From NCBI RefSeq assembly GCF_032362555.1, contig NC_083529.1:1302001-1366000 (forward strand): a stretch of 64,000 nt of DNA, given 5' to 3'. Position 1 is the stretch's first letter. Each line of letters opens with the position of its first letter. The translations under genes and the position numbers were made by a program. The notes below the pieces were generated by a model. It did not search any database. It was not told the DNA's origin and worked only from the letters and a program-made list of their open reading frames with translations. This document shows, piece after piece, positions 21,601 through 48,100 of the stretch. Source of the stretch: Amyelois transitella (Eukaryota; Arthropoda; Insecta; Lepidoptera; Pyralidae).

Positions 21601-24600
21601 ATTAAAATCCATACGTGCATAAAAAAGAATAGGACCGTCACTCTATCTCGTTCCCATGGATGTCGTAAAAAGCGACTAAGGGATGGGCTAGCAACCTAGT
21701 CAAAAATTCAGTTTTTAAGTCAAAGGTAAATTACACAGATTAAATAGATTAGAAGGTTGAAGAGATCATTGCTGGACGTCGCAAAAGATGATATGCGAGC
21801 CAATGGACTGAAATCCAAGGACGCCGAAAACCTGGTCAAGTGGAGAGAGAAGAGTCGGAAGGCGGACCCCGGGTCCCGAAACACTTCTGTGGAGGGTGCA
21901 ATCGGGAACACAGAGAGAGAGAGAATAAATTACAGTCTCATTTTAGCTGTCTAAAATAATGCCATCAAATAATCCTGTAAACAACCCAAGTTTCGCAGCT
22001 CAGTGTTTCTACCGTAAAAAGTTGTGAGATCCATGTAATACCAAGTCCGTTAATCTATTTAGTCTCTACCTAAAGGACCTTCTGTATTAATTTATTACAT
22101 AAGTTATTATCATGCCAATATTAAAAATATATAATGCCTGATTGATAAATAACTGAAAATTCAGGCGTCTTGCTTTTTCCACGACGAAATTGGGTGTCGA
22201 AAATGGACTGATTTGCTTCGAGAAATGGATGGTGCTCGACTTAAATTACTTACATCAGAAAACCCATATCCAGGTAGACTTGGCACAATGACTTCTATCG
22301 CGTAGTCTCTTTCCTTAGTAACTGCTGTTAGAAGTGGAATAGCTTCGTAGAATTCTCTTACTGAACCTGGCCAGCCGTGAAGGAGAAGAAGAGGAATTAC
22401 TTCTTTATTTTTGACCTGTAGATAAAAAAAAATCTAGATGAAACAAAGTTATTATTTTAATAAATGTTTAGTGGACAAATTACACAGAACGAAGCCTCAA
22501 AGTAAGTTCGTAACTTGTGTTACGAGATACTAACTCAACGATACTATATTTCATAAAAAATACGTAGATAAAAATGCGTTGTCAGCAAATGTACGTAACG
22601 GGCATTGCGAGGTACTTCTGTCTACTGTTTTAATTAAATTACACGATAACAATAATCGTGAGGATATTGTTCGTGAAGTGTTAGACAGTGGAAGTACATC
22701 CAGTCTTATGACTGAAAAACTGTGTCAACAGTTAAGCTTACAGATTAGTCAGGTAACTAGCTCAATCCTAGGCATAAAAATATTTTTTTATAAAAATCCA
22801 AGACCCAGACCAATTTGTAAAAGTTCGTTTCTCATCATGACCTGACCGGGATTTGAACCCGGGAGAACAGACAAGCGCATTCCCGCTACGCCACAGGCAG
22901 TCATCAATGATTTTTATCGCCTTTGTCCAAAATTATGACAAACTGTGCCATATGGTTTTCAGCACTTTAGAATAGGACCACTTCATAATTTTCCCATAGG
23001 TGTCGTAAAAGGCGACTAAGGCTTAGGCTAATAAACTTTGGATTCCTCTTGTAGGCCATGGGCTAGCAACCCGTCATTATTTGAATCTCAATTCCGCCAT
23101 ACAGCTGTACTTGGCCTTCCAGTCTTTTCGAGGCTGTTGGCTCAGTCCACCCCGCAAGGGATATAGACGTGATTATGTGTATGTATACCAATCTCACCTG
23201 AGGTTTAACCCTGATGAAATGAACATCCAAACCTTGAATATTAGTCTTGAACTGCGGGTATTGATTCAAAAACCTTTCTCTCTCCCTGAACGGGTACTTT
23301 ACAGCCCAATAAGTGGTCCATTCGTCTATCATTTTAGTGTTAAACCCGTATTCGAAGCCGACTCCTTCAAGAGGCAGTCGAAAAGGGACGTGATTCTTCA
23401 GTCTTGATTTGAGATCTTTGATCATCTGAAATGCAAACGAAATTAAAAACATCATTTGTGCCTTGTGGTTCTCGATACTTTATAATGGACCCGTGGATGT
23501 TGTAAATGGTGTTAAAGAAAATAGGTACTATTCATCTAGTGCAGCTTTTACTTTGATCCATTAGAGGTCAGGTTACCCTGCAAAGGTTGCGGAGGTCAGA
23601 CGGGAGTCGCTTCGTGTGAAAACCTAACTTACCCTATCCAGGATCATTTCCAATGGCGCACCCCGGGTTCCACTTCAGGGGAAAGATTCCGATGTTAGTG
23701 TATAGAATACTTCATCACATTAATTCGTATGTCTATTTTTTGTATATGGAATAGAATACAATAGATTTATTTTCAATATTGGATTCCAGGTATTACTTAA
23801 TGACGTGACATCACTTAAATCTTATTATATCTATTACCGCTTCCAAAGCGCATGTATAGATGAAGCGGCGTGACAAACTACACTGCAGCATTTTAACCGG
23901 ACGTCAATGTAGATCTCATGAAGATGAAAGAAAGTCTGACAGATAATAAATAAGCCTTTTTCAGGAAAGCATGTGAGTTCCTGTTCAGGAGTAAACACTC
24001 ATACACTACACATATCTTCAAAACTCTAATTTGGTTCAATATCTATACATATAATCATGTCTATATCCCTTCCGGGGTAGACAGAGCCAACAATCTTGAA
24101 AAGACTGATAGGCCACGTTCAGCTGTTTGGCTTAATGATAGAATTGAGATTCAAATAGTGACAGGTTGCCAGCCCATCGCCTAAAAGAAGAATCCCAAGT
24201 AAATAAGCCTATCCTTTAGTTTAAGTTCAATATATTCCAAATTAAGTTACTAACTGCCGTGCGGTTGCCGGCACCAATAGAAAAAAGAATAGGACCACTC
24301 CATCTCGTTCCCATGGATGTCGTAAAAGACGGTTAAGGGATAAGCTTACAAACTTGGCATTCTTCAATTAGGCGACGGGCTAGCAACCTGTCACTATTTT
24401 AATCTCAATTCTATCACTAAGCCCAATAGCTCAATGTAGCCTATCAGTTTTTTCATGACTGTTGGATCTGTCTACATACATTCATATAATCACGTCTATA
24501 CCACGCAAGGGATATAGACGTGATATATAATAAATAAATAAATATATACGGGACAAATTACATTAATTGGGTTAGCCTCGAAGTAAGTTTGAGACTTGTG

Positions 24601-26748
24601 TTACGAGATACTAACTCAACGATACTGTGTTTTATAATAAATACTTACAAATACAGATAAACATCCAAGACCCAGGCCAATCATAAAAAGTTATTTTCTC
24701 ATCATGCCCTGGCCGGGATTCGAACCCGGGACCTCCGATGTCACAGACAAGCATACAACCGCTGCGCCACATAGGCTGTCATATATCATGTATGTATGTT
24801 AAGTTACCTAAAAATACTTACACCATCACTAAATGTGATATTAAAAGGCCTGACACTCGTATCCTGCTTCCCCTTCAAAGACTCATCACCCCACCATTCT
24901 TCGTAATTCAGGTTGGGTATCGGTGGGGGTGGTTGGAGGAACAGCCAGTAACCCAAGCCGAGGATCACCACAGCTGGTATCAAGAGCAGCCATAACAAGG
25001 CGCGAATCAGACGAGACTATAAATTAAAACATGTATATTTAAAAAAAAATAAGTTCCTTTTTCGAAAAAGGTATCGTATTTTTTTTTTTTTTGAGAAAAG
25101 AAACATTAATACAGTCTCAACTGGGTGATTTTTTTAAAATATGTTTTATATAAATTGATAATTTTACATACATACATATAGTCACGCGTATATCCCTTGC
25201 GGTAGACAGAGCCAACAGTCTTTTAAAGACTGAAAGGCCACAGTCAGCCGTGTGGCAAAATTTTATTTTTTTTAGAAGCTTCAGAACAAACAGCATTGCA
25301 ACATTTTCATCGAACGTCGATTCACAAATATGCGCCTCTTTAATCTAAATCGTTAACGAATGCACATTTTGTACATTAAATCAACATGTATTACCAGGTA
25401 ATCCTAAAACTGTTATGTTGTATTTAATCTATACTCTATACTAATATTATAAAGCTGAAGTGTTTGTTTGTTTGAACGCGCTAATCTCAGGGACCACTGG
25501 TTCGAATTGAAAAATTATATTTGTGTTGAGTAGACCATTTATCGAGGAAGGCTTTAGGCTATATAACATCACGCTGCAACTATAAGGAGCAAAGAAATAA
25601 TGGAAAATGTGAAAAAAAAAACGGGGTAAATCATTCATACTTGAGGGCTTCAATGATGCCCATAATAACTATTCCACGCGGCCGAAGTCACGAGCACAGC
25701 TAGTTTTTGCATAATTTTAAGGTCGCTACCGCCATGACACCAATAGCTAATACTATTAAATAATTGTGCGCTAATAACGTGATCATTTTCCCGTTTGATA
25801 ATTTATAGTATACCTTCACCTTCTTTACCTGACTTAACCGCTATTACATACCTACATACAGTCACGTCTCTATTCCTAGCGGGGTTGACAGAACAAACAG
25901 TCTTGAAATGTCTAAAAGGCCACGTTTAGCTATAGGGCTTTATGGATGGAATTGAGATTGAAATAATGAGAGGTTGCTAACCCATCGCCTAAAAGAAAAA
26001 TCCCAAGTTTTTTAGCCTATCCCTTAGTCGCCTTTTACTACATCCATGGGAAAGAGATGGAGTGGTCCTATTCTCTTTTCTATTGGTGCCGGGAACCACA
26101 CGGAATCCGCTATTATTTCTTGATACTTATCGCTGATCGAACGAACTGGCAAAATATGGTCGAACCGAATAAATATAACCCTCCTTTTTTCTTCGCCGTA
26201 GTCGGGTAAAAAGCAATGTAAAGGTAAACCCAGGTTCAAATCTAGAGGCTTTAGATACTAATGACTCTTTTCTGAAGTGTGTACTGAAATTAATTTGTAA
26301 CTTAAACCAGCAGTTCCTGAGATTAGCGCGTTCAAACAAACAAACAAACAAACTCAGCTTTATAATATTAGTGTAAATAAAAAATTTTTTTTGCGCAATA
26401 TGGGTACAATCAGGTCTTTTTCAGATATTGCAAAATATTTATAAGTTAATAGCTGTGCCCGCGACTTCATCCGCGTGGAATAGTTATGTTGGGCATCATT
26501 AAAGCCCTCAAGGATGAATAATTTTCCCCGTTTTTTTTCACATTTACCATTATTATTTCTTCGCTCCTAGAAGTTGCAGCGTGATGTTATAATTATAGCC
26601 TAAAGCCTTCTTCGATAAATGGTCTATTCAACACAAAAATAATTTTTCAATTCGAACCAAAAGTTTCTGAGATTAGAGCGTCACAAACAAAGTCTTCAGC
26701 TTTATAATATTAGTACAGATTAAATTGATAAACACGCACCTTGGCCAT
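18630..26748 (-). CDS. JHEH: Juvenile hormone epoxide hydrolase, gene 1
   Basis: Hydrates the epoxide of juvenile hormone to the diol; a microsomal alpha/beta-hydrolase-fold enzyme. Coding exons on the minus strand, in order: 26748-26740 (ATGGCCAAG, inferred), 25016-24822, 23425-23198, 22415-22254, 21504-21358, 20751-20562, 19486-19249, 18852-18630. All have AG/GT borders and matching phases, giving about 463 residues. The N-terminal anchor LLWLLLIPAVVILGLG is followed by the QPPPPIP linker and EEWWG. HGWPGS (oxyanion) is at residue 157; the inferred triad is Asp232 in QGGDWG, Glu405 in AKYE and His432 in GGHF. The two lid tyrosines are present (GYYHLQ, RIYAES). The protein ends in KDEL. Sense RS tails sit just upstream of the exons at 19486 and 20751. 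The mini first exon is the least certain part. Confidence 0.9.
19501..19769 (-). mobile_element. RS repeat, full length, upstream of JHEH gene 1 exon
   Basis: Complete copy in the sense of gene 1, with ATGAGATT on both sides. Its tail starts 14 bp before the exon ending at 19486. Confidence 0.92.
19899..20161 (+). mobile_element. Small non-autonomous Helitron (AAGCTGAAGAG type)
   Basis: TCTATACTAATATTATAAAGC to CGCGAGCACAGCTTG; in an intron of JHEH gene 1. Confidence 0.8.
20769..20962 (-). mobile_element. RS repeat, older copy, upstream of JHEH gene 1 exon
   Basis: Diverged, head lost; in the sense of gene 1. The tail lies about 17 bp before the exon starting at 20751. Confidence 0.8.
21619..21700 (+). 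mobile_element. RS repeat, 5' fragment
   Basis: GAATAGGACC to GGGCTAGCAACCT with the middle partly deleted. Confidence 0.7.
21735..21890 (+). mobile_element. Fragment of another LINE reverse-transcriptase C-terminus
   Basis: An open frame gives KRSLLDVAKDDMRANGL followed by DAENLVKWREKSRKADP. This matches the conserved tail of RTE/CR1-like reverse transcriptases (LDVVKDDM...W...S..ADP pattern). It lies in an intron of JHEH gene 1. Family recognised from memory. Confidence 0.6.
21963..22165 (+). repeat. rF repeat (MITE-like)
   Basis: CCGTAAAAAGTTGTGAGATCC to a short hairpin end GCCTGATT...ATTCAGGC. An inverted relative lies at 53050-53370. Confidence 0.6.
22464..22905 (-). mobile_element. 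tRNA-derived SINE, split by a retropepsin fragment
   Basis: The tRNA-like head with B box (reversed GGGATTTGAACCCGG-type) is at about 22840-22905 and the tail (AACTTGTGTTACGAGATAC) at 22464-22560; 22565-22788 is foreign. Confidence 0.75.
22565..22788 (+). mobile_element. Retropepsin fragment of a BEL/Pao-like retrotransposon
   Basis: The open frame from about 22579 to 22788 reads VREVLDSGSTSSLMTEKLC, the aspartic-protease region (DSGS in place of DTG) of BEL/Pao-type elements. It sits exactly between the two halves of a tRNA-derived SINE on the other strand. About 70 residues only; no reverse transcriptase or LTR seen nearby. Confidence 0.6.
22946..23187 (+). mobile_element. RS repeat, older variant
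   Basis: Near complete; the head carries the CTTTAGAATAGG variant also seen at 4841 and 40410. Confidence 0.85.
23570..23700 (+). repeat. rE repeat
   Basis: CTGCAAAGGTTGCGGAGGTC and GGATCATTTCCAATGGCGCACC. Short eroded relatives occur near 2170-2260, 20340-20430, 28900-29000, 29080, 30265-30360, 37370-37430, 38240-38300, 44225-44320, 48285-48370 and 58462-58540. Confidence 0.6.
23748..23920 (+). repeat. rC repeat
   Basis: ATTACTTAATGACGTGACATC to CAGCATTTTAACCGGACGTC; in an intron of JHEH gene 1. Confidence 0.75.
24045..24220 (-). mobile_element. RS repeat, 3' two thirds
   Basis: Reversed copy lacking the head. Confidence 0.85.
24257..24474 (+). mobile_element. RS repeat
   Basis: Head GCCGTGCGGTTGCCGGC to GTTGGATCTGTCTAC. 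It is followed at 24475-24530 by two RS tails in opposite orientation. Confidence 0.85.
24541..24776 (-). mobile_element. tRNA-derived SINE
   Basis: Reversed copy: box B as GGGATTCGAACCCGGG, box A near CGCTGCGCCACA, body AACATCCAAGACCCAGGCC, tail side ACTCAACGATACTG. Confidence 0.85.
25166..25256 (-). mobile_element. RS repeat, 3' part
   Basis: Tail plus about 75 bp, ending at CAGCCGTGTGGC. It lies 150 bp upstream of the gene 1 anchor exon, in sense. Confidence 0.8.
25257..25382 (+). repeat. rC repeat, 3' part
   Basis: GCAACATTTTCATCGAACGTC and following. Confidence 0.65.
25435..25703 (+). mobile_element. Small non-autonomous Helitron (AAGCTGAAGAG type)
   Basis: TCTATACTAATATTATAAAGC to ACGAGCACAGCTAG|T, complete. 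Confidence 0.85.
25843..26104 (-). mobile_element. RS repeat, full length
   Basis: Complete reversed copy flanked by CCGCTATTA on both sides. Confidence 0.92.
26283..26375 (-). mobile_element. Helitron 5' fragment
   Basis: Reversed first 90 bp of the AAGCTGAAGAG-type Helitron; the right end is lost. Confidence 0.65.
26448..26719 (-). mobile_element. Small non-autonomous Helitron (AAGCTGAAGAG type)
   Basis: Reversed complete copy ending 21 bp from the candidate first exon of JHEH gene 1. Confidence 0.82.
26740..26748 (-). CDS. JHEH: Candidate first coding exon (Met-Ala-Lys) of JHEH gene 1
   Basis: On the minus strand ATGGCCAAG is followed at once by GTGCGTG, a usable donor. The next exon begins after TTTATAG at 25016 and has no ATG in frame before the membrane anchor (TCT CGT CTG ATT...). 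Both are phase 0, so they join as Met-Ala-Lys-Ser-Arg-Leu-Ile-Arg before the anchor. Not proven without transcripts. Confidence 0.5.
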
Positions 26749-30686: not shown

Positions 30687-33600
30687 ATGTTACCTATACT
30701 ATATTTAGCTTTACTAAGTATAGTCCATGGGTTTGAAGACTTCAGGTCTAGGCTAAACTTGACTGGACTTGACCAGGATGCGTGGTGGGGAGCCACGGAG
30801 ACAGGTCAAGCAGACACGAGAATAAAAAGAGTCAAAGTCGAGTTTCGTGATGAAGTAAGTTCATACACATTAATTAATATTTAATATTAATATTTTACCA
30901 CCCCATCTCTTTCCCATGGATGTCGTAAAAGGCGACTAAGGGATAGGTTTATAAACTTAGGATTCTTCTTTTAGGCGATGGGCTAGCAACCTGTCACTAT
31001 TTGAATCTCAGTTCTATCATTAAGCCAAATAGCTGAACGTGGCCATTCAGTCTTTTCAAGACTGTTGGCTCTGTCTACCACGCAAGGGATATAGACGTGA
31101 CCATATGTATGTATGTATGTAATATTTAATGAAAACACGTAAGTGACTATTAACCTTTTGTTGAGAGAAACGCAGACATGCGCGCGCCTAGTAAAAGTAA
31201 TACAATGAAAAGTTATACAATAACATACATACATACATACATATGGTCACGTCTATATCCCTTGCGGGGTAGACAGAGCCAACAGTCCCGAAAAGACTGA
31301 ATGGCCACGTTCAGCTATTTGGCTTAGTGATAGAATTGTGATTCAAATAGTGACAGGTTGCTAGCCCATCGCCTAAAAAAGAATCCCAAGTTTGTAAGCC
31401 TATCCCATAGTCGCCTTTGACGACATCCATTGGAAAGAGATGGAGTGGTCCTATTCTTTTTTGTATTGGTGCCGGGAACCACACGGCACGGTTAATACAA
31501 TAAACTAGTGCGTATATATTTATTTTTTATGTTATTTTTTGATTTTTCAGATGATTGAAGACCTAAAATACAGATTGCATCACCGTCGGCCTATAATCCC
31601 TACGCTTCAAGGCGCCTGGTTTGAATACGGGATGAATTCTGGAATAGTTGAAGATTGGCTTCAATATTGGGAGAAGGAGTATCCCTTTAAACAAAGACAG
31701 GATAAAATGAATCAATTCCCACATTACGTTACTAATGTACAGGGTCTGGATATACATTTTGTTAGAGTTCGACCTCAGAAAGTAAGTACACGTTACATAT
31801 AATCACGTCTATATCCCTTGCGGGGTAGACAGAGCCAACAGTCTTAAAAAGAATGATAGGCCACTTTCAGCTGTTAGGCTTGATGATAGAATTGATATTC
31901 AAATAGTGATAGGTTGCTAGCCCGTCGCCTAAAAGAAGAATACAATTTATAAGACTATCCCTTAGTCGCCTTTTACGACATACATAGGGAAGAGAATAGG
32001 AGCACTCATTCTTTTGATAATAATCTATCAATATAGACTTGACTATATGTATGTAGGTATGTAGATGTAAAAGTAGACAAAAAGAACATATGTAGATTGT
32101 ATGTTTATTTATTAATAAGTTTATAATTATATATATTTAGTGGATAGGTATATATCTATTATCTGTATTTCTTATATATATTATATTGTTGCTAATAAAT
32201 AACACAGTGACTTGCCGCATTTTACTGAATTATACATATATTTCCTTTATTGTTTGCCGGTTGACTGGAAGAGATCCCTTCATGGGATAAGTCCGCCATT
32301 GCAAGTGATTTGTTTCTTTTATAACTATGTACTTACTATTATCTTGTTACTGTGTAAATTTCTTTGCAATAAAGATATTACAAACAAACAAACAAAGAAC
32401 AATTTTTTGTAGGTTCCAAAAGGTGTAGAAGTGGTGCCCCTGATAATAATGGATGGGTGGCCGAGCTCCTTTGTCGGCTTCTACGAGGTCATACCTCGTC
32501 TTACGGCCTTGAGTAAGCATAGAGACTTTGCTGTTGAAGTTATCTACCCGTCCATACCAGGATTTACACTTTCTGAGGTAAGATTTCCAACATTCTATCT
32601 TTTGCCGAAGTTACGAACTATAACTGATTTTAAACATACATATATACATGTGGTCACGTCTATATCCCTAGCGGGGTAGACAGAGCCAACAGTCTTGAAA
32701 AGACTGAATGGCCACGTTCAGCGATTTATCTTAATGATAGAATTGAGACTCAAATAGTGACAGGTTGCTAACCAATCGCCTAAAAAAGAAATCCCAAATT
32801 TGTTAGCCCATTCCTTAGTCGCCTTTTACGACACCCATGGGAAAGAGATGGAGTGGTCGTATTCTTTTTTGTACCTATTGGTGCCGGGAACCACACGGCA
32901 CGGCATTAAAAACAACCCTGTATACATGAAATCCGAGCTTTATCAAATCCTACTCGTATAACAAGAAGCCGCCGTGTGGTTCCCGGCACCATTACAAAAG
33001 AATAGGACCACTCCATCTCTTTCCCACGGATGTCGTAAGAGCCGACTAAGGGATAGACTTGGGATTCCTCTTTAATGTAAATCCCTGCCAATCTAAGGTC
33101 TGCCGCGCCGATGGATGCATGGCTAGGGGCGAGCCTAGTCTCGAGCGTGCCACTTCCGCCATGGGGTTGGGCGACCCCCAGGTAATGGCTAGCCTTACCC
33201 TGGCATGCGGGGCTCTGCTGGGGCGGACAAAATTTTTCCCTAGCGTCTCGTGGGAATCGCATTATGAACCTTAAAAAGCATAGAAATGGCGGCGATGGTG
33301 TCCGCACCCCATCACGTCTCGTTCCCGGCGGGAGCGGTATGCGGTCTGCTGAAAGCCGCTTTGCGACGATGAATGTAAGAGGAGGAATGAAGGATAAGAT
33401 TGAGGAAGTATGCCAGATGATGGATGAAAGACGTTTGGATGTGTTGTGCGTGAATGAAACGAAGCGGAAAGGATGCGACGCGACGCAGCACGGCCCTTAC
33501 ACGGCGTATTGGTCTGGAATTTCCAGTACCAGCCGAGGCTGTCAAGGGGTCGGTCTAATTCTTTCTGCACGAATGGCTGAGTGCGTGAATGAGTATGAGT

Positions 33601-36600
33601 GTGTCAGCCCTCGTCTTCTATGGATTAGGCTGAAAGTTGGAATCACTCGGATCTTCGTTCTAGGTGTTTATGCACCTTGGGATGTGGGTTCGAGGGGTAC
33701 AACATCAGCAAAAAGCGAAAACGAGGAGTTCTGGAATAGTGTAAGAGAAGTATTGAAAGTTACCAAGCCAAATGAGAAGATTATTATGTTAGGTGATTTT
33801 AATGGATGGGTGGGTGTAAAGCGTGATGGATATGAAAAGGTGCTTGGTGCGTTTGGTGACGAAAAGGTGAATGATAATGGAAGAAGTGTATTAGAAATTT
33901 GTCTAGAGTGGGATCTTTTTGTGTCGAACTCAATGTTTCAACATAAAGAGATCCACACCTACACAAGAGTGGAAGGTATTTTAAAAAGTATGATAGACTT
34001 TGTGATTGTAGATGAAAGATTGAAGAACAAAGTGCTGGATACCCGTGCATATCGCGGTGCTGGCATTGACTCGGACCATTTACTGGTGATATCCCGGATA
34101 AGGGGTATCCTCAATCGCTGGCGGCACAGGGTAAGGGAGCAAACCAGCGCTTTGGAAAGAGTAAAAGTGGAAAATTTGCAAGATATGGATGTAGGTAAGA
34201 AGTATATTAATAGACTGAAGGATGAATTTGAAGATTTAGATGAAATGAGCGATATTGAAGATGGATGGAAGGAATTTAAAGAAAGAATTGTGAAAGTAGC
34301 TGTTGAAGTGTGTGGTGTAAGTAGAAGAAGGAAAGGAAAAAATCACAAAAATGCGTGGATGAGTAAAGATGTGCAAGAACTTGTGCGATTAAAGAAGAAA
34401 GCATGGCTGGATTTGTTAGCAGCAAAAGCTAACTTAAGAATGCAAGAGGTTATAGATGAAGATGTGAATGAAGCACGTAAGGAATATAAGAAAATGAAAG
34501 ATTTGGTTAAGAAAGCTGTGATTAGAAAGAAAGAAGAGTATAAAGAGGATTTTGATAAAAGGCTATCAGAAGACTTTCAGTCAAATCTGAAAGTATTCTG
34601 GAAATCCGTAAGGTCAGCCCGAGGAAATACTATAACCAGAGAGCTGACTAGGATCAGATGCCAGGATGGTAGCGTTGTGAAAGGAGAAGAATGTGTACTA
34701 AAGATATGGAAGGACTATTTTGAAAGTTTATTTGAAAAAAAGGAAGGAAATAAGAAAGATTTCTGCTATAGCGAAGAAAAAGAGAATGAGATGGAAGGCG
34801 AAATTGAAATGTTCGAAATTGTGGAAGCACTTAAGAGTATGAAAGCGGGAAAGGCTGCTGGGTGTGATAGAGTGTCGGTCGAGATGCTTAAAGCAGGAAA
34901 AGGCGTAGTAGCTAGTCAGTTGTACTGCCTTTTCAATTTGTGTTGGAGAAGCGGCCGAGTACCAAAAGATTGGTGTAAGGCTGTTATCGTGCCACTTTAC
35001 AAAGGAAAAGGGTCACAGCTGGACTGCAAAAATTATCGTGGTATAAGCCTGCTTAGCGTCGTCGGCAAATTGTATGCTAAGGTATTGATTAATAGAGTCA
35101 GGAATGAAACTGATGACAAAATATGGGATGCTCAAGCGGGATTTCGAAAGGGAATGGGATGTACTGATCAGGTCTTTTCCTTGCGGTGCATAGCCGAAAA
35201 GTTTTTGGCCAAGAGTCAAAAAGTCTATTGCACATTCGTAGATCTGGAAAAGGCCTATGACAGAGTTGAGAGGAATGAATTGTGGTCAGCACTTTCTATG
35301 CATGGGGTGAGCAGTCTCTTAATACGAGCACTGAAATCCTTATATGAGGATTCGAGTGCTTGTGTCAGGATAAACGGAGCGCACACTGAGTGGTTTAAGA
35401 TTGAGAAAGGCGTTAGGCAAGGATGTGTTGCGTCACCGTGGCTGTTCAACCTATTTATGGATAGCTGTTTGACAGATTTGAAAGAGTCTAAAAGTGGATT
35501 AAGGATGAATGAGTTACTCGTCAAATGTCTGCTCTATGCCGACGATCAGGTTATACTGGCGTCATCAGCGGAGGAGTTACAGGAGATGGTAAACTGTATG
35601 CATGAAGCTTTAAAAGAGAAAGGAATGAAAGTGAACGTAAGTAAAACTAAAACACTGGTTTTTGAAATGGAGAAAGAAGTGACAGCATGTAATGTTTTGA
35701 TTGGAGGAGAAAAAGTGGAGCAAGTGAAAGAGTTTGTATATCTAGGATCAAAGTTTACATCAGATGGCAAGTATGATAGTGATATTGAAAGGAGAGTGAA
35801 CGCGGGGAACATGGTGAATGGAGCTTTGCATGCCTTTATGAGCAGTCAGAAACTATCCAAAAAGGCTCGACTGGCTGTGCACAGGGGCGTGTTGGTCCCG
35901 ACATTGATGTATGGGAGTGAAAGTTGGGTATGGCAAAAGAAGCATGAAAGCAGAATAAATGCAGTGGAAATGAGAGCGTTAAGGAGTATGATGGGTGTGA
36001 AATTGAGTGACAGGATAAGGAACAGCGTGATAAGGGAATGTTGTGGTTGTGATGTGAAAGAAGATGTAGTTACAGGAATAGAAAAGGGTATGTTGGGATG
36101 GTTCGGTCATGTGGAGAGGATGAATGAAAGCAGGTTGACTAAGCAGATATACAAGGAGAGTGTGGAGGGAAAGGTCGGAGTGGGAAGACCTAGACGAACG
36201 TATCTTGATCAAATTAAGGACGTCCTGGTAAAGGGTCAGGTCAAAAGTACCCGAAACCGCCGAGCTTGTATGAAGAGAGTTATGAATGTGGACGAAGCGA
36301 AAGAAGTATGCAGAGATCGTGGCAAGTGGAAAGAGGTAGTCTCTGCCTACCCCTCCGGGAAAGAGGCGTGATTTTATGTATGTATGTATGTATGTATAAC
36401 AAGAAGAAACGCCAGTAATAAAATTTAAGTCACGACACGAGTCTTTGTTTATTTACTATATGTTTATTTTTTGTTACGTGCGCAGATTGACCTGCACTAG
36501 CACCTAGGTCATAACTGAAAATCAGCGTATTGCTCTACAGCAACAAATTTGTTGAGTTGTGACCTTTTTGTATTGCTGCAACTCACACCCTATTAATTTG

Positions 36601-39600
36601 TATTTTCATATGAAATTGTAAATCGTGTGTAGCAAATCAAATAAATGAATTATCTATCTATTTATCTATCTAATAAATCGGAATTTGTTCCAGGCGTCTG
36701 TAAAACCCGGTTTGGGCCCAGCAGAAGTGGGTATCCTCTACAGAAAACTAATGCACAGATTGGGCCATAAGAAATATTACATCGCCAGTAACGACATGGG
36801 CATGTTTATTGCCAATTTTATTGTTACTGCTTTTCCTGAGGTGAGGTTTGATCGATGTTATTCACACGGATCAGTTTGGTGGAATGTGTAAAAGGGTTAT
36901 TGAAAAGGAGAGTATATGTTGGGTTGTGCCGTGTTGTTCCCGGCACCAATAAAAAAAAGAATAGGACCACTCCATCTCTTTGCCATGGATGTCGTCAAAG
37001 GCGACTAAGGGATTTTTTAGGCGATGGGCTAGCAACCTGTCACTATTTCAATCTCAATTCTATCATTAAGCCAAATAGCTGAACGTGGCCATTTAGTATT
37101 TTCAAGACTGTTGGCTCTGTCTACCCCGCAAGGGATATAAACGTGAACATATTTATGTATGTATGTATGTTGGGAACTTGGGAACATGTTGTACAGAACA
37201 TTGCATGCCTTTATCAGACAGAAACTGTCCAAAAAGGCTCATCTAGAGGTGCATAGAAGCAGGTTCGTCCCAAAACTAATGTGTGGAAGTAAATGTTGAA
37301 TGTGGAATTTTCTTTTTCTTGTAGTGCAATAAAGAGTTTATCTATCTATCAAGGATTCTGGAATGAGTGAGTCAAGTTTTTACACGAACCGACTCCCGTC
37401 TGACCTCTGCAACCTTTGCTTGTGGACCTAACCCATATTATATATATATATACGGAACAAATTACACAAATTGAGTTAGCCTCGAAGTAATTTCGAGACT
37501 TGTGTTACGAGATAGTAACTCAACGATACTATATTTTTATAATAAATACTTATATAGATACTTGTATAGGCGTGATTTTATGTGTATGTGTATATAGATA
37601 TACATCCAAAACCCAGGCCAATCAGAAAAAGTTCTTTTCTCATCATGCCCTGGCCGGGATTCGAACCCGGAACCTCCGGTGTCACAGACAAGCGTACTAC
37701 CGCTGCGCCACAGAGGCCGTTATTGGATCTATCATGGTAACACATAGCCACTAACCTAAATGTGCAGGTTTCCTCACGATGTTATCCCTCACCGTTAGTA
37801 TCAGAGCATCAGTTAATATCAAAACAGTACATAATTACGAAAATAGTCATTGATACGTGGAAGAGCTGAGATTTGAACCTGTCCCTTTTATGCGCATTTT
37901 TACTGGGCTCCTAATCGATTCGAATGCCGACGCTCTTTATGTCATTGAAGTGAAAGAAAGAGAACGCATGTTTCGTGACAAGAAGAAGAATGTAGACTCT
38001 GATCAACTGAACTAACATTTCAGGATGTCCTCGGCTATTTCACTCAACTGCTCATTCTTCAAAATTCACTATTATCATCTGTAACTGACTCTGCTTACAC
38101 CGACTCTGTCTACACCGCCAACTACACTGGGAGGAGAACTCGGGACGATGACAACCGCCAGTCTCCGTATCTCTTCCATCAGGCTTCCAGCCCTGATACC
38201 CTCGGTAAGAGAACTAATTTAACTTCTTCATTTAACGGGTAAGATTCCCCTGCAAAGGTTGCAGGGTTTCAGACGGGAATCGGTTCATGTAAAAACTTGA
38301 CTCTTGTCTTGTCTTGGAAGAAGAGCTGTAGAGGACAGATGAAAGTCTTGGAAGAAGAAGAACTTTTGCAGGGGAACATAACCCATATTGGACCATATAG
38401 GTTTATAAACTTTTGATTCTTCTTTTAGGCGATGGGCTAGCAACCTGTCATTATTTGAATCTCAATTCTATCTTAAAGATAAATAGCTGAACGTGTCTTA
38501 TCTGTCTTTTTACGACTACTGGTTCTGTCTACCTCGCAAGGGATAATGACGTGCTTATATGTATGTATGTATTGGATCATGGTAAAAGCTGCGCATGATA
38601 AATTTTTCTATTTCCTTAATCGATTCTTCCGCTATGTCGCGCGTCATGGTATTTGCCGAGCATAAGAGACCCAAAAATTTTCACCTATATTTTTATGGTT
38701 TTCAGGAATTGGCTTAAATGACTCACCATCAGGCCTCCTTGGCTATATTCTGGAGAAATTTCACTTTGCGAGGGTCCTGGACAGGAAGGAGAACGCCGGT
38801 GTCAAGATCCAAGACCATATCCCGAGGGATGTCTTACTGGATAACATTATGCTGTATTGGATGACTGGGAGTATAACTACCAGTATGAGGTTCTACGCGG
38901 AAACGTTTAATGATAGAGTAATAGCTATGAATGTTGATGAGTGAGTATTTCTTCTTTTAAACAAGTTCACATACATACATACATACATATGATCACGTCT
39001 ATATCCCTAGCGGGGTAGACAGAGCCACCAGTCTTGAAAAGACTGATAGGCCACGCTCAGCTGTTTGGCTTAGTGATAGAATTGAGATTCAAATAGTGAC
39101 AGGTTGCTAGCCCATCGCCTAAAAGAGGATTCCCAAGTTTATAAGCCTATCCCTTAGTCGCCTTTTACGACATCCGTGGGAAAGAGATGGAGTGGTCCTA
39201 TTCTTTTTTGTAATGGTGCCGGGAACCACACGGCACAAGTTCACAAATATAAATATTTTAAATTTACCTTTTGAGTCTCGCATCACCTGATTCACAAATT
39301 TAATTTTGTTTCTAACAGTTACAAGACTCCTTTGTTTTTACCTGTTTAAAATTCAGGATCGTGTCAAATTAGCTCTTACCAGCGAGTTCTCCAGAATTTA
39401 ACGCCACCTATAGAAAAATACAAGATTTTTCACAAATCACACGAAAACTATAGTTTTTACAGGGATGGAATATCCTATGTCCTTCTCCAGACTCCTATTT
39501 ATACATACATATCATCACGTCTATATCCCTTACGGGGTAGACAGAGCCAACAGTCTTGAAAAGACTGAAAGGCCACGTTCAGCTATTTGGCTTAATGATA

Positions 39601-40250
39601 GAATTGAGATTCAAATAGTGACAGGTTGCTAGCCTGTCGCCTAAAAAAGAATCCCGAGTTTGTAAGCCTATCCCTTAGTCGCCTTTTACGACATCCATGG
39701 GAAAGAGATGGAGTGGTCCTATCCTTTTTTGTATTGGTGCCGGGAACCACACGGCACTCCTATTTATAAAGAAACGAATATAGATTTTTCACAATTTTTA
39801 TGTAACATTATTCTGGATTATTATATTTTCATTGATTTCAACTATACTAGGGTCAGGTCAAAAGTACCTGAAACCGCCGAGCTTGCATGAAGAGAGTTAT
39901 GAATGTGGATGAAGCGAAGGAAGTATGCAGAGATCGTGGCAAGTGGAAAGAGGTAGTCTCTGCCTACCCCTCCGGGAAAGAGGCGTGATTTTATGTATGT
40001 ATGTTTAACTATACGTTTCCTTCACAGAACTCCTTCACCAGTACTAACATGGATAACGGAACCCAGATACGAGATATCTCCGCACCCTCACTGGGTCAAG
40101 AAGACCAAATTCCCGAATCTCGTCAGCCACAAAATCCTGAACTTTGGCGGACATTTCCTGTATTACGAATTCCCTGATGTCTACGCGAACGAAGTGATAT
40201 CCGCTGTAGCTGCTTTCAGGAAGATTCACATCAGCAAAAATGGATTGTAA
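30687..40250 (+). CDS. Divergent JHEH-like gene 2 with altered active-site motifs
   Basis: Seven exons, 30687-30854, 31551-31781, 32413-32577, 36694-36840, 38024-38204, 38706-38940 and 40028-40250, join in frame with AG/GT borders to about 449 residues. There is no stop or frameshift. An ATG at 30663 in the same frame would add eight residues. The exon layout equals JHEH genes 1 and 3. Likely triad residues remain: Asp222, Glu391 (RYE), His418 (GGHF), and the two lid Tyr (SPYLFHQ, RFYAET). But HGWP is DGWP (residue 147) and GGDWG is SNDMG. Exon 5 is poorly conserved. The start MLPILYLALLSIVHG resembles a cleavable signal peptide; the usual proline-rich linker is absent. NLT and NYT sites fit a lumenal or secreted protein. 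A possible 5' UTR donor (AAAG|GTAAGAA) lies near 29728. The third intron carries a full-length LINE. Family certain; function unknown. Confidence 0.85.
30900..31121 (+). mobile_element. RS repeat, head missing
   Basis: CATCTCTTTCCCATGG to the TATG tail; in intron 1 of gene 2. Confidence 0.9.
31225..31489 (-). mobile_element. RS repeat, full length
   Basis: Complete reversed copy with ATACAATAA on both sides; in intron 1 of gene 2. Confidence 0.93.
31794..32015 (-). mobile_element. RS repeat
   Basis: Nearly complete reversed copy directly after gene 2 exon 2; the donor of that exon lies 13 bp away. Confidence 0.85.
32205..32400 (+). repeat. 3' end of a poly(A)-type LINE-like repeat
   Basis: CTGGAAGAGATCCCTTCATGG, GGATAAGTCCGCC and TGCAATAAAG followed by a (CAAA)n tail; ends just before gene 2 exon 3. 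Related tails with TGCAATAAAG at 37316-37352 and 49370-49450. Confidence 0.6.
32634..32903 (-). mobile_element. RS repeat, full length
   Basis: Complete reversed copy, 65 bp before the full-length LINE, in intron 3 of gene 2. Confidence 0.92.
32956..32968. repeat. Left target-site duplication of the LINE
   Basis: GTATAACAAGAAG, identical to 36394-36406 on the other side of the LINE. Confidence 0.95.
32969..36393 (+). mobile_element. Full-length RTE-group LINE
   Basis: A 3425-bp non-LTR retrotransposon in intron 3 of JHEH-like gene 2, same strand. It is flanked by a perfect 13-bp target duplication, GTATAACAAGAAG, at 32956-32968 and 36394-36406. It begins CCGCCGTGTGGTTCCCGGC, has a 5' leader of about 295 bp, one ORF (33264-36371), almost no 3' UTR, and ends in a (TATG)n tail. 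The single ORF with endonuclease plus reverse transcriptase and the short-repeat tail is typical of the RTE group. The clean duplication and intact ORF point to recent insertion. Confidence 0.95.
33264..36371 (+). CDS. RTE LINE polyprotein: apurinic-type endonuclease and reverse transcriptase
   Basis: 1035 residues, uninterrupted. Endonuclease about residues 30-280: catalytic Glu65 in CVNETKRKG, YAPW, LGDFNGWVG (Asp178, Asn180) and SDH at 270-272. A charged linker follows at about 290-520. The reverse transcriptase has NYRGISLLSVVGKLYAKVL, AGFRKGMGC, FVDLEKAYDRV, GVRQGCVASPWLFNLF and YADD at 758-761. A C-terminal region with GWFGHVERM follows. All core residues are present, so it may be active. 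The product copies LINE RNA into DNA at a nicked target. The stop codon lies only about 20 bp before the element's end. Confidence 0.95.
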   Translation: MNLKKHRNGGDGVRTPSRLVPGGSGMRSAESRFATMNVRGGMKDKIEEVCQMMDERRLDVLCVNETKRKGCDATQHGPYTAYWSGISSTSRGCQGVGLILSARMAECVNEYECVSPRLLWIRLKVGITRIFVLGVYAPWDVGSRGTTSAKSENEEFWNSVREVLKVTKPNEKIIMLGDFNGWVGVKRDGYEKVLGAFGDEKVNDNGRSVLEICLEWDLFVSNSMFQHKEIHTYTRVEGILKSMIDFVIVDERLKNKVLDTRAYRGAGIDSDHLLVISRIRGILNRWRHRVREQTSALERVKVENLQDMDVGKKYINRLKDEFEDLDEMSDIEDGWKEFKERIVKVAVEVCGVSRRRKGKNHKNAWMSKDVQELVRLKKKAWLDLLAAKANLRMQEVIDEDVNEARKEYKKMKDLVKKAVIRKKEEYKEDFDKRLSEDFQSNLKVFWKSVRSARGNTITRELTRIRCQDGSVVKGEECVLKIWKDYFESLFEKKEGNKKDFCYSEEKENEMEGEIEMFEIVEALKSMKAGKAAGCDRVSVEMLKAGKGVVASQLYCLFNLCWRSGRVPKDWCKAVIVPLYKGKGSQLDCKNYRGISLLSVVGKLYAKVLINRVRNETDDKIWDAQAGFRKGMGCTDQVFSLRCIAEKFLAKSQKVYCTFVDLEKAYDRVERNELWSALSMHGVSSLLIRALKSLYEDSSACVRINGAHTEWFKIEKGVRQGCVASPWLFNLFMDSCLTDLKESKSGLRMNELLVKCLLYADDQVILASSAEELQEMVNCMHEALKEKGMKVNVSKTKTLVFEMEKEVTACNVLIGGEKVEQVKEFVYLGSKFTSDGKYDSDIERRVNAGNMVNGALHAFMSSQKLSKKARLAVHRGVLVPTLMYGSESWVWQKKHESRINAVEMRALRSMMGVKLSDRIRNSVIRECCGCDVKEDVVTGIEKGMLGWFGHVERMNESRLTKQIYKESVEGKVGVGRPRRTYLDQIKDVLVKGQVKSTRNRRACMKRVMNVDEAKEVCRDRGKWKEVVSAYPSGKEA
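36394..36406. repeat. Right target-site duplication of the LINE
   Basis: GTATAACAAGAAG, identical to 32956-32968; directly follows the TATG tail. Confidence 0.95.
36926..37170 (+). mobile_element. RS repeat, full length
   Basis: Near-complete copy with TATGTTGGG on both sides; short deletion after GGGATTTTT. Confidence 0.9.
37452..37722 (-). mobile_element. tRNA-derived SINE
   Basis: Full reversed copy with the same boxes. A short AT-rich insertion at about 37555-37605 contains a LINE-like GCGTGATTTTATGTGTATG tail. Confidence 0.85.
38397..38570 (+). mobile_element. RS repeat, 3' two thirds
   Basis: From GGTTTATAAACTTTTGATTC to the TATG tail. Confidence 0.85.
38969..39235 (-). mobile_element. 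RS repeat, full length
   Basis: Complete reversed copy flanked by ACAAGTTCACA. Confidence 0.95.
39500..39757 (-). mobile_element. RS repeat, full length
   Basis: Complete reversed copy flanked by ACTCCTATTTATA. Confidence 0.95.
39847..40011 (+). mobile_element. 5'-truncated RTE LINE copy before gene 2 last exon
   Basis: About 165 bp of LINE 3' end in sense; its TATG tail ends about 17 bp before the acceptor of gene 2 exon 7. Confidence 0.85.
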
Positions 40251-45154: not shown

Positions 45155-48100
45155 ATGGTGAAACTCTTCCTTCCTACCCTCGTCATCGTAATTGCTTTGA
45201 TATGCTACGTGTTCTTCAGGCCATCCCCCCCACTGCCTGATTTGGACTACCATAGATGGTGGGGGTCCAAAGAGACCAGGTCTCGATTGGACACCAATGT
45301 CATACCTTTTGAAGTTAATTTTAGTGAGGAGGTAATTATAGAAATCAGAATTGGATTACTATTTAAATCTTAATTCTATCATTAAGGCCAAGCGGCTGAG
45401 CGTGGCCTATCAGTCTTTTAAAGACTGCTCTGTCTAGCCCGTAAGGTATGAGGACGTGATCATATGTATGTATGTATGTAGAATTGGATTAGGTATATTT
45501 TTCATAACATTCGACGGCCTGTTTCAGTAAGTAGGTTCTGTAAAAACAGGTCGGGTTCGAATCCCAGCCAGGGCATGATGAGAAACGAACTTTTTCTAAT
45601 CGGCCTGAGTCTTGAATGTTTTATCCATTTGAGTAGATATATATTATAAAATAAAGAACATCTCTCCGGGAAAAAGGCGTGATTTTATGTATGTTTTTAT
45701 GTAAAAGAACTTCGAGACTAGCGTTGAAAATTCCGAAAGAAACAAATTGTTTTTTTTTTGCGAAAGAAACGTTTTTTCGTTTTTTAAACGTTTTATTGGT
45801 TTGTAACATTAAAATATATCAGAATAAAAACTTGAGGAAAAACAGTTTTATTGAGATTTTCGTCGTTTGTTTCGAAAAATAAAAAAAAAACGATTGGAAA
45901 AACACGTTTAATTACCAATTTTTAAAACAATGATGCATATTGTAAGGAAATCAATACTTTTCCTATCGTATTTTTCCGTTTCTTTCATATTTTTCCGGTT
46001 TATTAATAAAAAACATGAAATAATTCATTCTTATTTTTCTTGAAACTTTCGTAAAAAACTTGTATAGGTACCTAAATACGAGGGAATTTGAAAAAAACAG
46101 GAAAATTTTCCGCTTTTTTCAACCTATGTAATTTGTAGTACCTATTTAATAATTTCTTTGGATTGAATGTCTGAAACAAAAGGAAAAAAAATATCGGGAA
46201 CAGGGTCATCCAGCGAGTGCAGGTGAACTATTTTGCCTTCCTAGAAATATACATAGAGTAGAAGAAGAAGAAGTAGCAGACATGGAGATGATCAGCTTTA
46301 AGGAGAATGAGGGCACAGAGGATACCATTACAAGACTCCGAACTCCTTAGACCCGATACCTGTGTCCCAATGGAAACTCAATAGTGTAGCTTTCTATCAT
46401 ATGAATGAGCGAATGCGTGAACAAGTGAATGAGTGAATGAGTGAACGAGAGAATGAGTGAACGAGTGAATGAGTGAACGAGTGAATGGATGAACGAGTAT
46501 ACATATCTGACGGCCTCTGTGGCGCAGCGGTAGTACGCTTGTCTGTGACACCGGCGGTCCTGGGTTTGAATCCCGGCCAGGACATGATGAGAAAAAATCT
46601 TTTTCTGATTGGCCTGGGTCTTGGATGTTTATCTATATAAGTATTTATTATAAAATATAGTATCGTTAAGTGAGTATCTCGTAACACAAGTCTCGAACTT
46701 ACTTCGAGGCTAACTCAATCTGTGTACGAGTAATTTGTCCCGTATATATTTATTTATTTATATTTCCTTGTTTCTTTTAGTCTTGAACACTTAAAATCTC
46801 CTCATTTCTATTTCAGATGATACAAGATCTGAAATGGCGGCTCAAGAACCACCAGCCTTTCACGCCTCCCTTAGAAGGAGTAGCCTTCGAGTATGGCTTT
46901 AACAGTGACACCCTCACTGATTGGCTGAATTACTGGGCTGATAAGTACCCGTTTGGAGAGAGGCAAAAATTCTTCAATAAATACCCTCATTTCAAGACTA
47001 ATATCCAGGGATTGGATATACATTTTATCAGGGTTAAACCGAAGGTAAGAATTGAATTAAACCTAAGGTTTTAACCACATTAAGTATCGTTGTATGGACA
47101 CCGCCTTCCTATCTTCTGGATCCGATCTGGATATATGAACCGTAATCTTTTCTGCCCCTTGTGGGGTAGACAAAGCCAACAGTCTTAAAAAGACTGATAG
47201 GCCACGTTCAGCTGTTTGGCTTAATGATAGAATTGAGGTTCATATAATGACAGGTTCCTAGCTCATCGCCTAAAAGAGGATTCCCAATTTAATAAGCTTA
47301 TCCCTTAGTCTTCTTGTACGACATCTGTAGGAACGACATGGAGTGGTCTCTTTTTTATTAGTGACCAAAATTTTATATAATAACAGAAGACAAGGAGAAC
47401 CTCCAATTTAATCCACTTTTATCCTATACTTTCAGGTGAAGCCTGGAGTCCAAATAGTGCCGATGTTGCTTTGCCACGGCTGGCCAGGGTCCGTTAGAGA
47501 GTTTTACGAAGCGATCCCACATCTAACTGCCACCAGTGAAGACAGAGACTTCGCCTTGGAACTTATCATACCAAGTCTACCTGGTTTTGGGTTTTCTGAT
47601 GTAAGAAAAGTTGTTACCATAGAGTCTTTGACTTAATTTTAAATAATAATGTCAATTGTTGTAAGGTATACGTATGTTTGCCATAAATTTTATAAAAGTT
47701 GACATAAAAAGGCCATATTCACATAGCGAAAGAAATTTGAGATTTGAGATGAAAACACAAATTATTTAACCGAAACTACTCTGTTTGATGCTTGATAAGA
47801 GATGCTGAATTATATTTTCAAGCATCAAACAGCTGAACGTGGCCTTTCAGTTTTCCAAAGACTGTTGGCTCTTTCTACCCCGCAAGGGATATAGACGTGT
47901 CTATATGTATGCATGTATTACAGGCAGCCGTTCGCCCTGGACTCAGCTCAGTAGATGTGTCGGTAATCTTCAGGAACCTGATGAAACGGCTGGGTTATGA
48001 CAAGTTCTACTTCCAAGGAGGAGATTGGGGAGCATTTGTTGGGTCTGCCATGGCTACAATATTTCCTGAGGTAAACAATAACATACATGCCATCACGCCT

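What the first reader, a model, noticed from the sequence alone, without database searches (positions are those of the whole stretch)
30687..40250. A JHEH paralog with rebuilt oxyanion and nucleophile motifs and a secretory-type start
Seen: gene 2 is fully open across seven exons with conserved splice sites, so it is not a simple pseudogene. HGWP has become DGWP and GGDWG has become SNDMG, while the presumed Asp222, Glu391, His418 and both lid Tyr remain. The membrane anchor and proline-rich linker are replaced by a signal-peptide-like start, NxT sites appear, and exon 5 (lid) is strongly diverged. Known: HGxP forms the oxyanion hole of microsomal epoxide hydrolases. Inference: altered or lost hydrolysis, perhaps a secreted or lumenal hormone/lipid-binding protein, or an enzyme for another epoxide.
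Basis: partly seen in the sequence, partly recalled or inferred. Interest (0 to 1): 0.8.

Follow-up and report, generated by a model that had tools for sequence, protein, structure and literature searches.

The report
Moth hormone-enzyme paralog with altered active site
One of four neighbouring moth-type genes for juvenile-hormone-degrading enzymes is still an intact gene that shows selection, but it has changed residues around its catalytic centre that its relatives keep and has swapped its membrane anchor for what looks like a secretion signal, so it probably no longer breaks down the hormone in the usual way.

Summary
Gene 2 (30687-40250, + strand) is a seven-exon, 449-residue open gene of the microsomal/juvenile-hormone epoxide hydrolase family, one of four found in the window. 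HGWPG is DGWPS and QGGDWG is ASNDMG; Asp222, Glu391, His418, Tyr286 and Tyr361 remain. Of 39 columns invariant in 18 other family members (archaea to insects), gene 2 changes 9, six of them in the oxyanion loop and nucleophile elbow; genes 1, 3, 4 and Bombyx change 1, 0, 0 and 0. Gene 2 groups with gene 3 on a branch about six times longer. dN/dS = 1 on that branch is rejected, but synonymous sites are saturated and exon 5 alone does not reject it. The N-terminus is shorter and less hydrophobic, like a signal peptide. Best reading: a new variant of a known kind, a secreted or lumenal JHEH-fold protein with impaired or redirected catalysis. JHEH-like proteins are already reported from Bombyx silk-gland lumen. 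Orthologs, transcripts and activity could not be tested.

The parts
30687..30854 (+). gene 2 exon 1: hydrophobic start MLPILYLALLSIVHG, N24 sequon, WWG motif
   Evidence: spliced model; hydropathy; acceptor-like TTCCAG directly before ATG
30687..30731 (+). signal-peptide-like residues 1-15, possible cleavage after VHG (rule recalled, not predicted by a tool)
   Evidence: KD19 1.43; genes 1, 3, 4: 2.55, 2.52, 2.38
31551..31781 (+). gene 2 exon 2 (EHN domain)
   Evidence: Pfam EHN 2e-24 over residues 46-156
32413..32577 (+). gene 2 exon 3, oxyanion loop
32452..32466 (+). DGWPS (residues 147-151) in place of HGWPG
   Evidence: HGWPG in 18 of 18 relatives
36694..36840 (+). gene 2 exon 4, nucleophile elbow
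36784..36801 (+). ASNDMG (residues 219-224) in place of QGGDWG; Asp222 kept
38024..38204 (+). gene 2 exon 5 (lid), diverged, 24 bases shorter than in gene 3; Tyr286 and sequon N270
38706..38940 (+). gene 2 exon 6, Tyr361
40028..40250 (+). gene 2 exon 7, Glu391 and His418, P382L and A421Y, stop
18630..25016 (-). paralog gene 1, seven modelled exons, canonical HGWP/GGDWG; no in-frame ATG in the first modelled exon
45155..50484 (+). paralog gene 3, seven exons, canonical; nearest relative of gene 2 in the tree
54164..60442 (+). paralog gene 4, seven exons, canonical; intron 4 displaced
33186..36371 (+). LINE open frame (1061 codons, reverse transcriptase) inside gene 2 intron 3, same strand

Best explanation
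Gene 2 is a tandem duplicate of a canonical juvenile-hormone epoxide hydrolase (closest to gene 3) kept by selection as a protein. Its product is most likely sent into the secretory pathway by a cleavable signal peptide instead of being anchored to the ER membrane by a hydrophobic helix. It keeps the alpha/beta-hydrolase core, the attacking Asp222, the Glu391/His418 pair and both epoxide-holding tyrosines, but it has changed the oxyanion loop, the residues flanking the nucleophile and the lid. Most likely effect: it still binds, and may still attack, an epoxide or other hydrophobic ligand, while turnover of juvenile hormone is slow or absent, so it acts more as a lumenal or extracellular ligand-binding or slow-turnover protein than as a clearance enzyme. 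Shown: gene model, motif changes, branch length, rejection of dN/dS = 1 for the branch as a whole. Inferred: secretion, loss of juvenile-hormone turnover, binding role.
For: Open seven-exon model with frame-preserving length changes in four exons relative to gene 3 (-9, +3, -24, +9 bases). Of 39 family-invariant columns 9 are changed, 6 of the 11 in the oxyanion loop and elbow against 3 of 28 elsewhere (Fisher p 0.008, segments chosen after seeing the data). dN/dS = 1 on the gene 2 branch rejected, 2 delta lnL 16.0, estimate 0.07; the same with wider limits and under the two other topologies (16.7, 16.9). Neutral decay of gene 3 to the observed 46.6% identity left 6 or more stops in 200 of 200 simulations (mean 16). 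GC3 0.469, like gene 1 (0.471), against window GC 0.366. Short, weakly hydrophobic N-terminus. Precedent: JHEH and JHEH-like proteins in Bombyx silk-gland lumen, with signal peptides predicted for six of the juvenile-hormone-metabolising enzymes found there (PMC4840313, passages).
Against: The five catalytic side chains are kept; at the 114 of 178 retention rate of JHEH-invariant columns this would happen by chance about 11% of the time, so it neither proves nor refutes activity. Synonymous sites are saturated, so dN/dS values are rough, and the gene 2 ratio is not significantly different from that of the other branches (2 delta lnL 1.4). In exon 5 alone dN/dS = 1 is not rejected (2.7; 1.8 with wider limits). 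No expression, ortholog, signal-peptide prediction or structure model. A LINE frame of 3.2 kb sits in intron 3 and a SINE-like fragment ends 26 bases before the start exon. The signal-peptide-like start lacks a basic residue.
Confidence: 0.45

Rival explanations
1. A working epoxide hydrolase with a new substrate: the changed loop, elbow and lid re-shape the pocket for another epoxide (plant, lipid or cuticular), perhaps in an extracellular fluid.
For: Triad and both lid tyrosines kept; SNDMG keeps small residues at nucleophile -2 and +2, G148-W149-P150 intact; exon 5, the lid, is the exon least like Bombyx JHEH; selection on the branch.
Against: The His of HGWP and the QGG before the nucleophile are invariant in 18 of 18 relatives from archaea to insects, so relatives that presumably differ in substrate all keep them.
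Confidence: 0.33
2. A gene in early decay or a relaxed copy: function lost recently, open frame not yet broken.
For: Long branch, 1.1 against 0.19 changes per site; loss of invariant residues; LINE and SINE-like insertions in introns; exon 5 compatible with dN/dS = 1.
Against: Neutral decay long enough to give the observed divergence left stops in 200 of 200 simulations; dN/dS = 1 for the whole branch rejected; frame kept through length changes in four exons. A very recent loss cannot be excluded.
Confidence: 0.12
3. Still membrane-bound: the true start lies in an upstream exon that completes a longer anchor, so only the active site is altered. (This concerns location only and can hold together with other readings of the active site.)
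For: Gene 1's first modelled exon has no in-frame ATG, so its start is upstream or lost; gene 2's ATG sits directly after an acceptor-like AG.
Against: Genes 3 and 4 begin at, or 2 bases after, such an AG with ordinary anchors; the polar stretch GFEDFRSRLNLTG stands where the paralogs have the end of the anchor and the proline linker, whatever lies upstream.
Confidence: 0.15
4. Sequencing or assembly error, or chimera, creates the motif changes.
For: None found; no second individual or read data was available to check.
Against: At the nine changed family-invariant columns, 7 of 9 gene 2 codons differ by 2 or 3 nucleotides from every paralog codon, and 5 of 9 need at least 2 changes from any codon of the gene 3 residue; frame and splice sites intact over 9.5 kb; the nine changes lie in four exons (3, 4, 5, 7).
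Confidence: 0.02

Closest known systems
Bombyx mori juvenile hormone epoxide hydrolase (PDB 4QLA)
   Same: Same family by sequence (phmmer E 3.9e-119, query 25-444), same triad and lid tyrosines.
   Different: 41.8% identical only (genes 1, 3 and 4: 58.5%, 63.7% and 63.0%); DGWPS/ASNDMG instead of HGWPG/QGGDWG; exon 5 identical at 8 of 60.
Bombyx JHEH-like proteins lp1-lp5 and JHEH-like proteins of the silk-gland lumen
   Same: Lepidopteran JHEH duplicates; three JHEH and JHEH-like proteins found in a gland lumen by proteomics (PMC4840313, passages); five JHEH-like genes cited for Bombyx, orthologs of three expressed in Pararge aegeria (PMC3654919, passages).
Microsomal-type epoxide hydrolases of bacteria and fungi (PDB 5f4z, 4i19, 8xiz)
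   Same: N-terminal epoxide-hydrolase region, Asp nucleophile, GGHF His motif in the alignment.
   Different: 3 of 3 keep HGWPG and QGGD; their N-termini were not compared.
[quoted passage not shown]
   Same: Analogy only: hydrolase fold used to perceive a hormone with slow or no turnover (PMC3531792, search listing only; the rest recalled).
   Different: Different family, kingdom, location and partners; no evidence of signalling here.

Membership tests
Microsomal epoxide hydrolase / JHEH family (PF06441 plus alpha/beta-hydrolase) | EHN N-terminal domain | tested here: met
   Pfam EHN 2e-24, 86.3 bits, cut-off 22.8
Microsomal epoxide hydrolase / JHEH family (PF06441 plus alpha/beta-hydrolase) | Alpha/beta-hydrolase core profile (PF00561) | tested here: inconclusive
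   Genes 1, 3, 4 match at 3.6e-15, 1.1e-17 and 2.2e-16, gene 2 not at 0.001; yet it aligns over 25-444 with 4QLA at 3.9e-119
Microsomal epoxide hydrolase / JHEH family (PF06441 plus alpha/beta-hydrolase) | Catalytic triad Asp-Glu-His and two lid tyrosines | tested here: met
   D222, E391, H418, Y286, Y361
Microsomal epoxide hydrolase / JHEH family (PF06441 plus alpha/beta-hydrolase) | HGxP oxyanion motif | tested here: not met
   DGWP; HGWP in 18 of 18 relatives
Microsomal epoxide hydrolase / JHEH family (PF06441 plus alpha/beta-hydrolase) | Phylogenetic position inside the insect JHEH group | tested here: met
   Sister of gene 3, support 98/94, in a five-row insect group 100/100; holding it with gene 1 or gene 4 gives p-AU 0.05 and 0.09, not firmly rejected
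Functional juvenile hormone epoxide hydrolase (enzyme) | N-terminal membrane anchor | tested here: not met
   Hydropathy 1.43 against 2.38-2.55; an upstream exon is not excluded
Functional juvenile hormone epoxide hydrolase (enzyme) | Hydrolyses juvenile hormone to the diol | not testable with these tools
   Needs an assay
Pseudogene | Broken frame or neutral evolution | tested here: not met
   Open frame; dN/dS = 1 rejected on the branch as a whole, not in exon 5 alone

The most novel reading that the evidence does not exclude
Gene 2 is a secreted covalent trap for an epoxide hormone: Asp222 and the two tyrosines still open the epoxide to form the enzyme ester, but the rebuilt oxyanion loop and elbow leave that ester very slow to hydrolyse, so the protein sequesters juvenile hormone (or a related epoxide) one molecule at a time in an extracellular fluid such as haemolymph or a gland lumen. 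A hormone-degrading enzyme would have been turned into a hormone buffer.
Probability: 0.12. Interest if true: 0.8.

Novelty: new variant of a known kind. Interest (0 to 1): 0.5.

Why it matters
Juvenile hormone titre is set by synthesis, binding and breakdown. A duplicate of a breakdown enzyme that leaves the membrane and alters its catalytic surroundings would be a new route to a hormone-binding or hormone-buffering protein, parallel to plant receptors that arose from hydrolases. It would also warn against counting every JHEH-like gene as a degrading enzyme in expression or pest-control studies. If it is instead an enzyme for another epoxide, it shows that the HGxP histidine is not indispensable in the microsomal class.

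Tried and rejected
The genome search on the window's own genome was asked 13 times with the same request and never reached, so further paralogs elsewhere in the genome and any whole-genome test are missing. Related loci: genome contigs gave 2 prokaryote relatives, viral contigs none; neither collection is meant to hold moth genomes, so this says nothing about orthologs. Papers: no paper holds both DGWP and epoxide hydrolase; in the listings seen (one search listed 40 of 278 papers, 20 of 28, the others in full) and the passages read, no JHEH paralog with a lost HGWP was described, which is not proof that none is in print. Three papers read by passages gave nothing on motif state (PMC9329738, PMC9226219, PMC9406231).

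Rejected ideas: excess of glycosylation sites (3 against 2, 2, 2); W to M as a catalytic loss (L or I in 3 of 18 relatives); cysteine gain for an oxidising space (gene 2 has none, paralogs 1, 2 and 3). One sequon that genes 1, 3, 4 and Bombyx share, nine residues before the catalytic His, is lost in gene 2 (N409S); it would fit lumenal exposure but is one change among 64 of 178, so weak. Free-ratio dN/dS per branch is unstable because of saturation. Keeping the five catalytic residues is not by itself significant.

Full report
The window comes from a moth-like genome (inferred from the JHEH genes and the repeats; the source is not named) and carries four genes of the microsomal epoxide hydrolase / juvenile hormone epoxide hydrolase (JHEH) family. 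Gene 1 lies on the minus strand (25016 to 18630), genes 2, 3 and 4 on the plus strand (30687-40250, 45155-50484, 54164-60442), each with seven modelled exons. A tblastn of the four proteins against the window gave 100 hits up to E 1, none outside these 28 exons, so no fifth copy or fragment was found. Pfam finds the EHN domain in 4 of 4 and the alpha/beta-hydrolase profile PF00561 in genes 1, 3 and 4 but not in gene 2 at E 0.001. Gene 2 nevertheless aligns over residues 25-444 with Bombyx JHEH (PDB 4QLA, E 3.9e-119).

Its six introns all have GT-AG ends, the phases equal those of gene 3, and the frame is open for 449 codons although exons 1, 2, 5 and 7 differ in length from gene 3 by -9, +3, -24 and +9 bases. 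The motif changes are DGWPS for HGWPG (32452-32466) and ASNDMG for QGGDWG (36784-36801). Asp222, Glu391, His418, Tyr286 and Tyr361 are in place.

To see how unusual this is, gene 2 was aligned with 18 relatives: genes 1, 3, 4, Bombyx 4QLA, PDB 5f4z, 4i19 and 8xiz, and 11 prokaryote loci, two of them archaeal. 8xiz is taken as fungal because the similarly named entry 6ix4 is given as Aspergillus usamii in PMC9313241 (passage). The nine plasmid loci were picked from 30 listed rows of 469 matching records. HGWPG and QGGD occur in 18 of 18. Of 39 columns invariant in all 18, gene 2 changes 9: H147D, G151S, E155G, Q219A, G220S, G221N, H243F, P382L, A421Y. By the same count gene 1 changes 1 of 40, and gene 3, gene 4 and Bombyx 0 of 39 each. 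Six of the 11 such columns in the oxyanion loop and elbow are changed, against 3 of 28 elsewhere (Fisher p 0.008; the segments were drawn after the changes were known). For 7 of the 9 changed columns the gene 2 codon is two or three nucleotides from every paralog codon, and 5 of 9 need at least two changes from any codon of the gene 3 residue, which speaks against single-base errors. Two points temper the picture. The W after the nucleophile is L or I in 3 of 18 relatives, and SNDMG keeps small residues at nucleophile -2 and +2, as the general elbow rule (recalled) asks, while Gly148, Trp149 and Pro150 stand. The site looks rebuilt, not wrecked. Of the 139 other columns that are invariant in the four insect enzymes gene 2 changes 55 (40%, against 23% of the family-invariant ones), so the divergence is general, with family-invariant columns still better kept overall.

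Evolution. In a maximum-likelihood protein tree gene 2 is sister to gene 3 (98/94) with a branch of 1.1 changes per site against 0.19 for gene 3; placing it with gene 1 or gene 4 instead is not firmly rejected (p-AU 0.05, 0.09), and the position of Bombyx JHEH is open. A codon model on 441 ungapped codons of the four paralogs gives dN/dS about 0.07 on the gene 2 branch and rejects 1 (2 delta lnL 16.0; profile values up to about 0.2 remain acceptable). The result holds with wider limits on branch lengths and under the two other topologies (16.7, 16.9). Gene 2's ratio does not differ significantly from that of the other branches (2 delta lnL 1.4). Synonymous sites are saturated, so only the rejection of 1, not the value, should be used. 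Without exon 5 the rejection stands (15.1), in exon 5 alone it fails (1.8). Neutral decay of gene 3 to the observed 46.6% identity left 6 or more stops in 200 of 200 runs. Third-position GC is 0.469, like gene 1 (0.471; genes 3 and 4: 0.505, 0.569), above the window's 0.366. A gene that died very recently cannot be excluded.

N-terminus. The best 19-residue hydropathy mean is 2.55, 2.52 and 2.38 in genes 1, 3 and 4 but 1.43 in gene 2; by eye gene 2 has about 12 hydrophobic residues, followed by a polar stretch without proline before the kept WWG motif. VHG before Phe fits the -3,-1 cleavage rule (recalled). This suggests a cleavable signal peptide, but no predictor was available and the start lacks a basic residue. 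Sequons are not in excess (3; genes 1, 3, 4 have 2 each). An upstream coding exon is possible, since gene 1's first modelled exon has no ATG.

Function. JHEHs are described with a triad, an oxyanion hole of HGxP and two tyrosines, an N-terminal YWG/WWG motif and a transmembrane start (PMC5429749, passages; also, in part, PMC5024112, passages, and PMC9313241, passages). Work on the alpha/beta-hydrolase fold assigns positions around the nucleophile and the oxyanion loop to coordination of the triad and to ligand contact (PMC7034887, passages). Changes concentrated there, with a remade lid, therefore predict altered ligand handling and probably poor turnover of juvenile hormone; this is inference. 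Since the nucleophile and tyrosines of the first half-reaction are kept, a slow-turnover or covalently trapping protein is possible, as is an enzyme for another epoxide. JHEH-like proteins outside the cell have a precedent: three JHEH and JHEH-like proteins were found in Bombyx silk-gland lumen, the authors noting that leakage was not excluded and that six of the juvenile-hormone-metabolising enzymes (JHE and JHEH types together) have predicted signal peptides (PMC4840313, passages). Five JHEH-like genes are cited for Bombyx and orthologs of three are expressed in Pararge aegeria (PMC3654919, passages). Whether any of these is gene 2's ortholog is unknown here.

Verdict. It is a new variant of a known kind: a duplicated JHEH with a changed active site and a secretory-type start. 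Interest 0.5, limited by the lack of orthologs, expression and activity data.

Noticed in passing
window 18630-60442: exon starts at 20751, 19486, 30687, 40028, 45155, 47924, 54164, 55933, 58193: At 9 of 28 JHEH exon starts the (TATG)n tail of a same-strand repeat (by eye 8 SINE-like, 1 LINE fragment) ends only 10-31 bases before the exon start; three of the nine are first coding exons, where the acceptor is assumed. Random placement of the 42 tails outside exons gave a mean of 0.58 and at most 5 in 20,000 draws. Antisense tails likewise sit within 70 bases of 5 of 24 donors (expected 0.77); sense tails at donors and antisense tails at acceptors: 0 within 100 bases. The 15 full-length 5' ends show no such excess. 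The null ignores target-site preference. A mammalian study of TE-poor zones in introns near exons appeared in a search listing only (PMC3088655).
   Followed up: partly
window 5111-5150: A further SINE-like tail ends 21 bases before an AG that opens a frame reading GALFGGMAGG, which by eye resembles a sugar-transporter exon: possibly the same tail-at-acceptor pattern in an unrelated gene.
   Followed up: no
window 57513-58355: Gene 4 lacks the family's intron 4 and instead has an intron (57699-58192) 13 codons further downstream, which holds three SINE-like fragments: intron loss plus gain, or displacement.
   Followed up: partly
window 24990-25030, minus strand: Gene 1's first modelled exon has no in-frame ATG; the frame opens right after TTTATAG, so the start codon lies in an unfound upstream exon or is lost.
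   Followed up: no
window 33186-36371: Open 1061-codon LINE frame (reverse transcriptase 3.9e-41, endonuclease 3.3e-06) inside gene 2 intron 3, sense strand; its 3' end resembles the SINE-like family's end.
   Followed up: partly
window 9797-10900: Sugar transporter (PF00083, 4.5e-47) frame of 367 codons.
   Followed up: no
window 38084-38131: Gene 2 exon 5 holds a short degenerate tandem repeat (TDSAYTDSVYTANYTG), a possible source of the remade lid.
   Followed up: no
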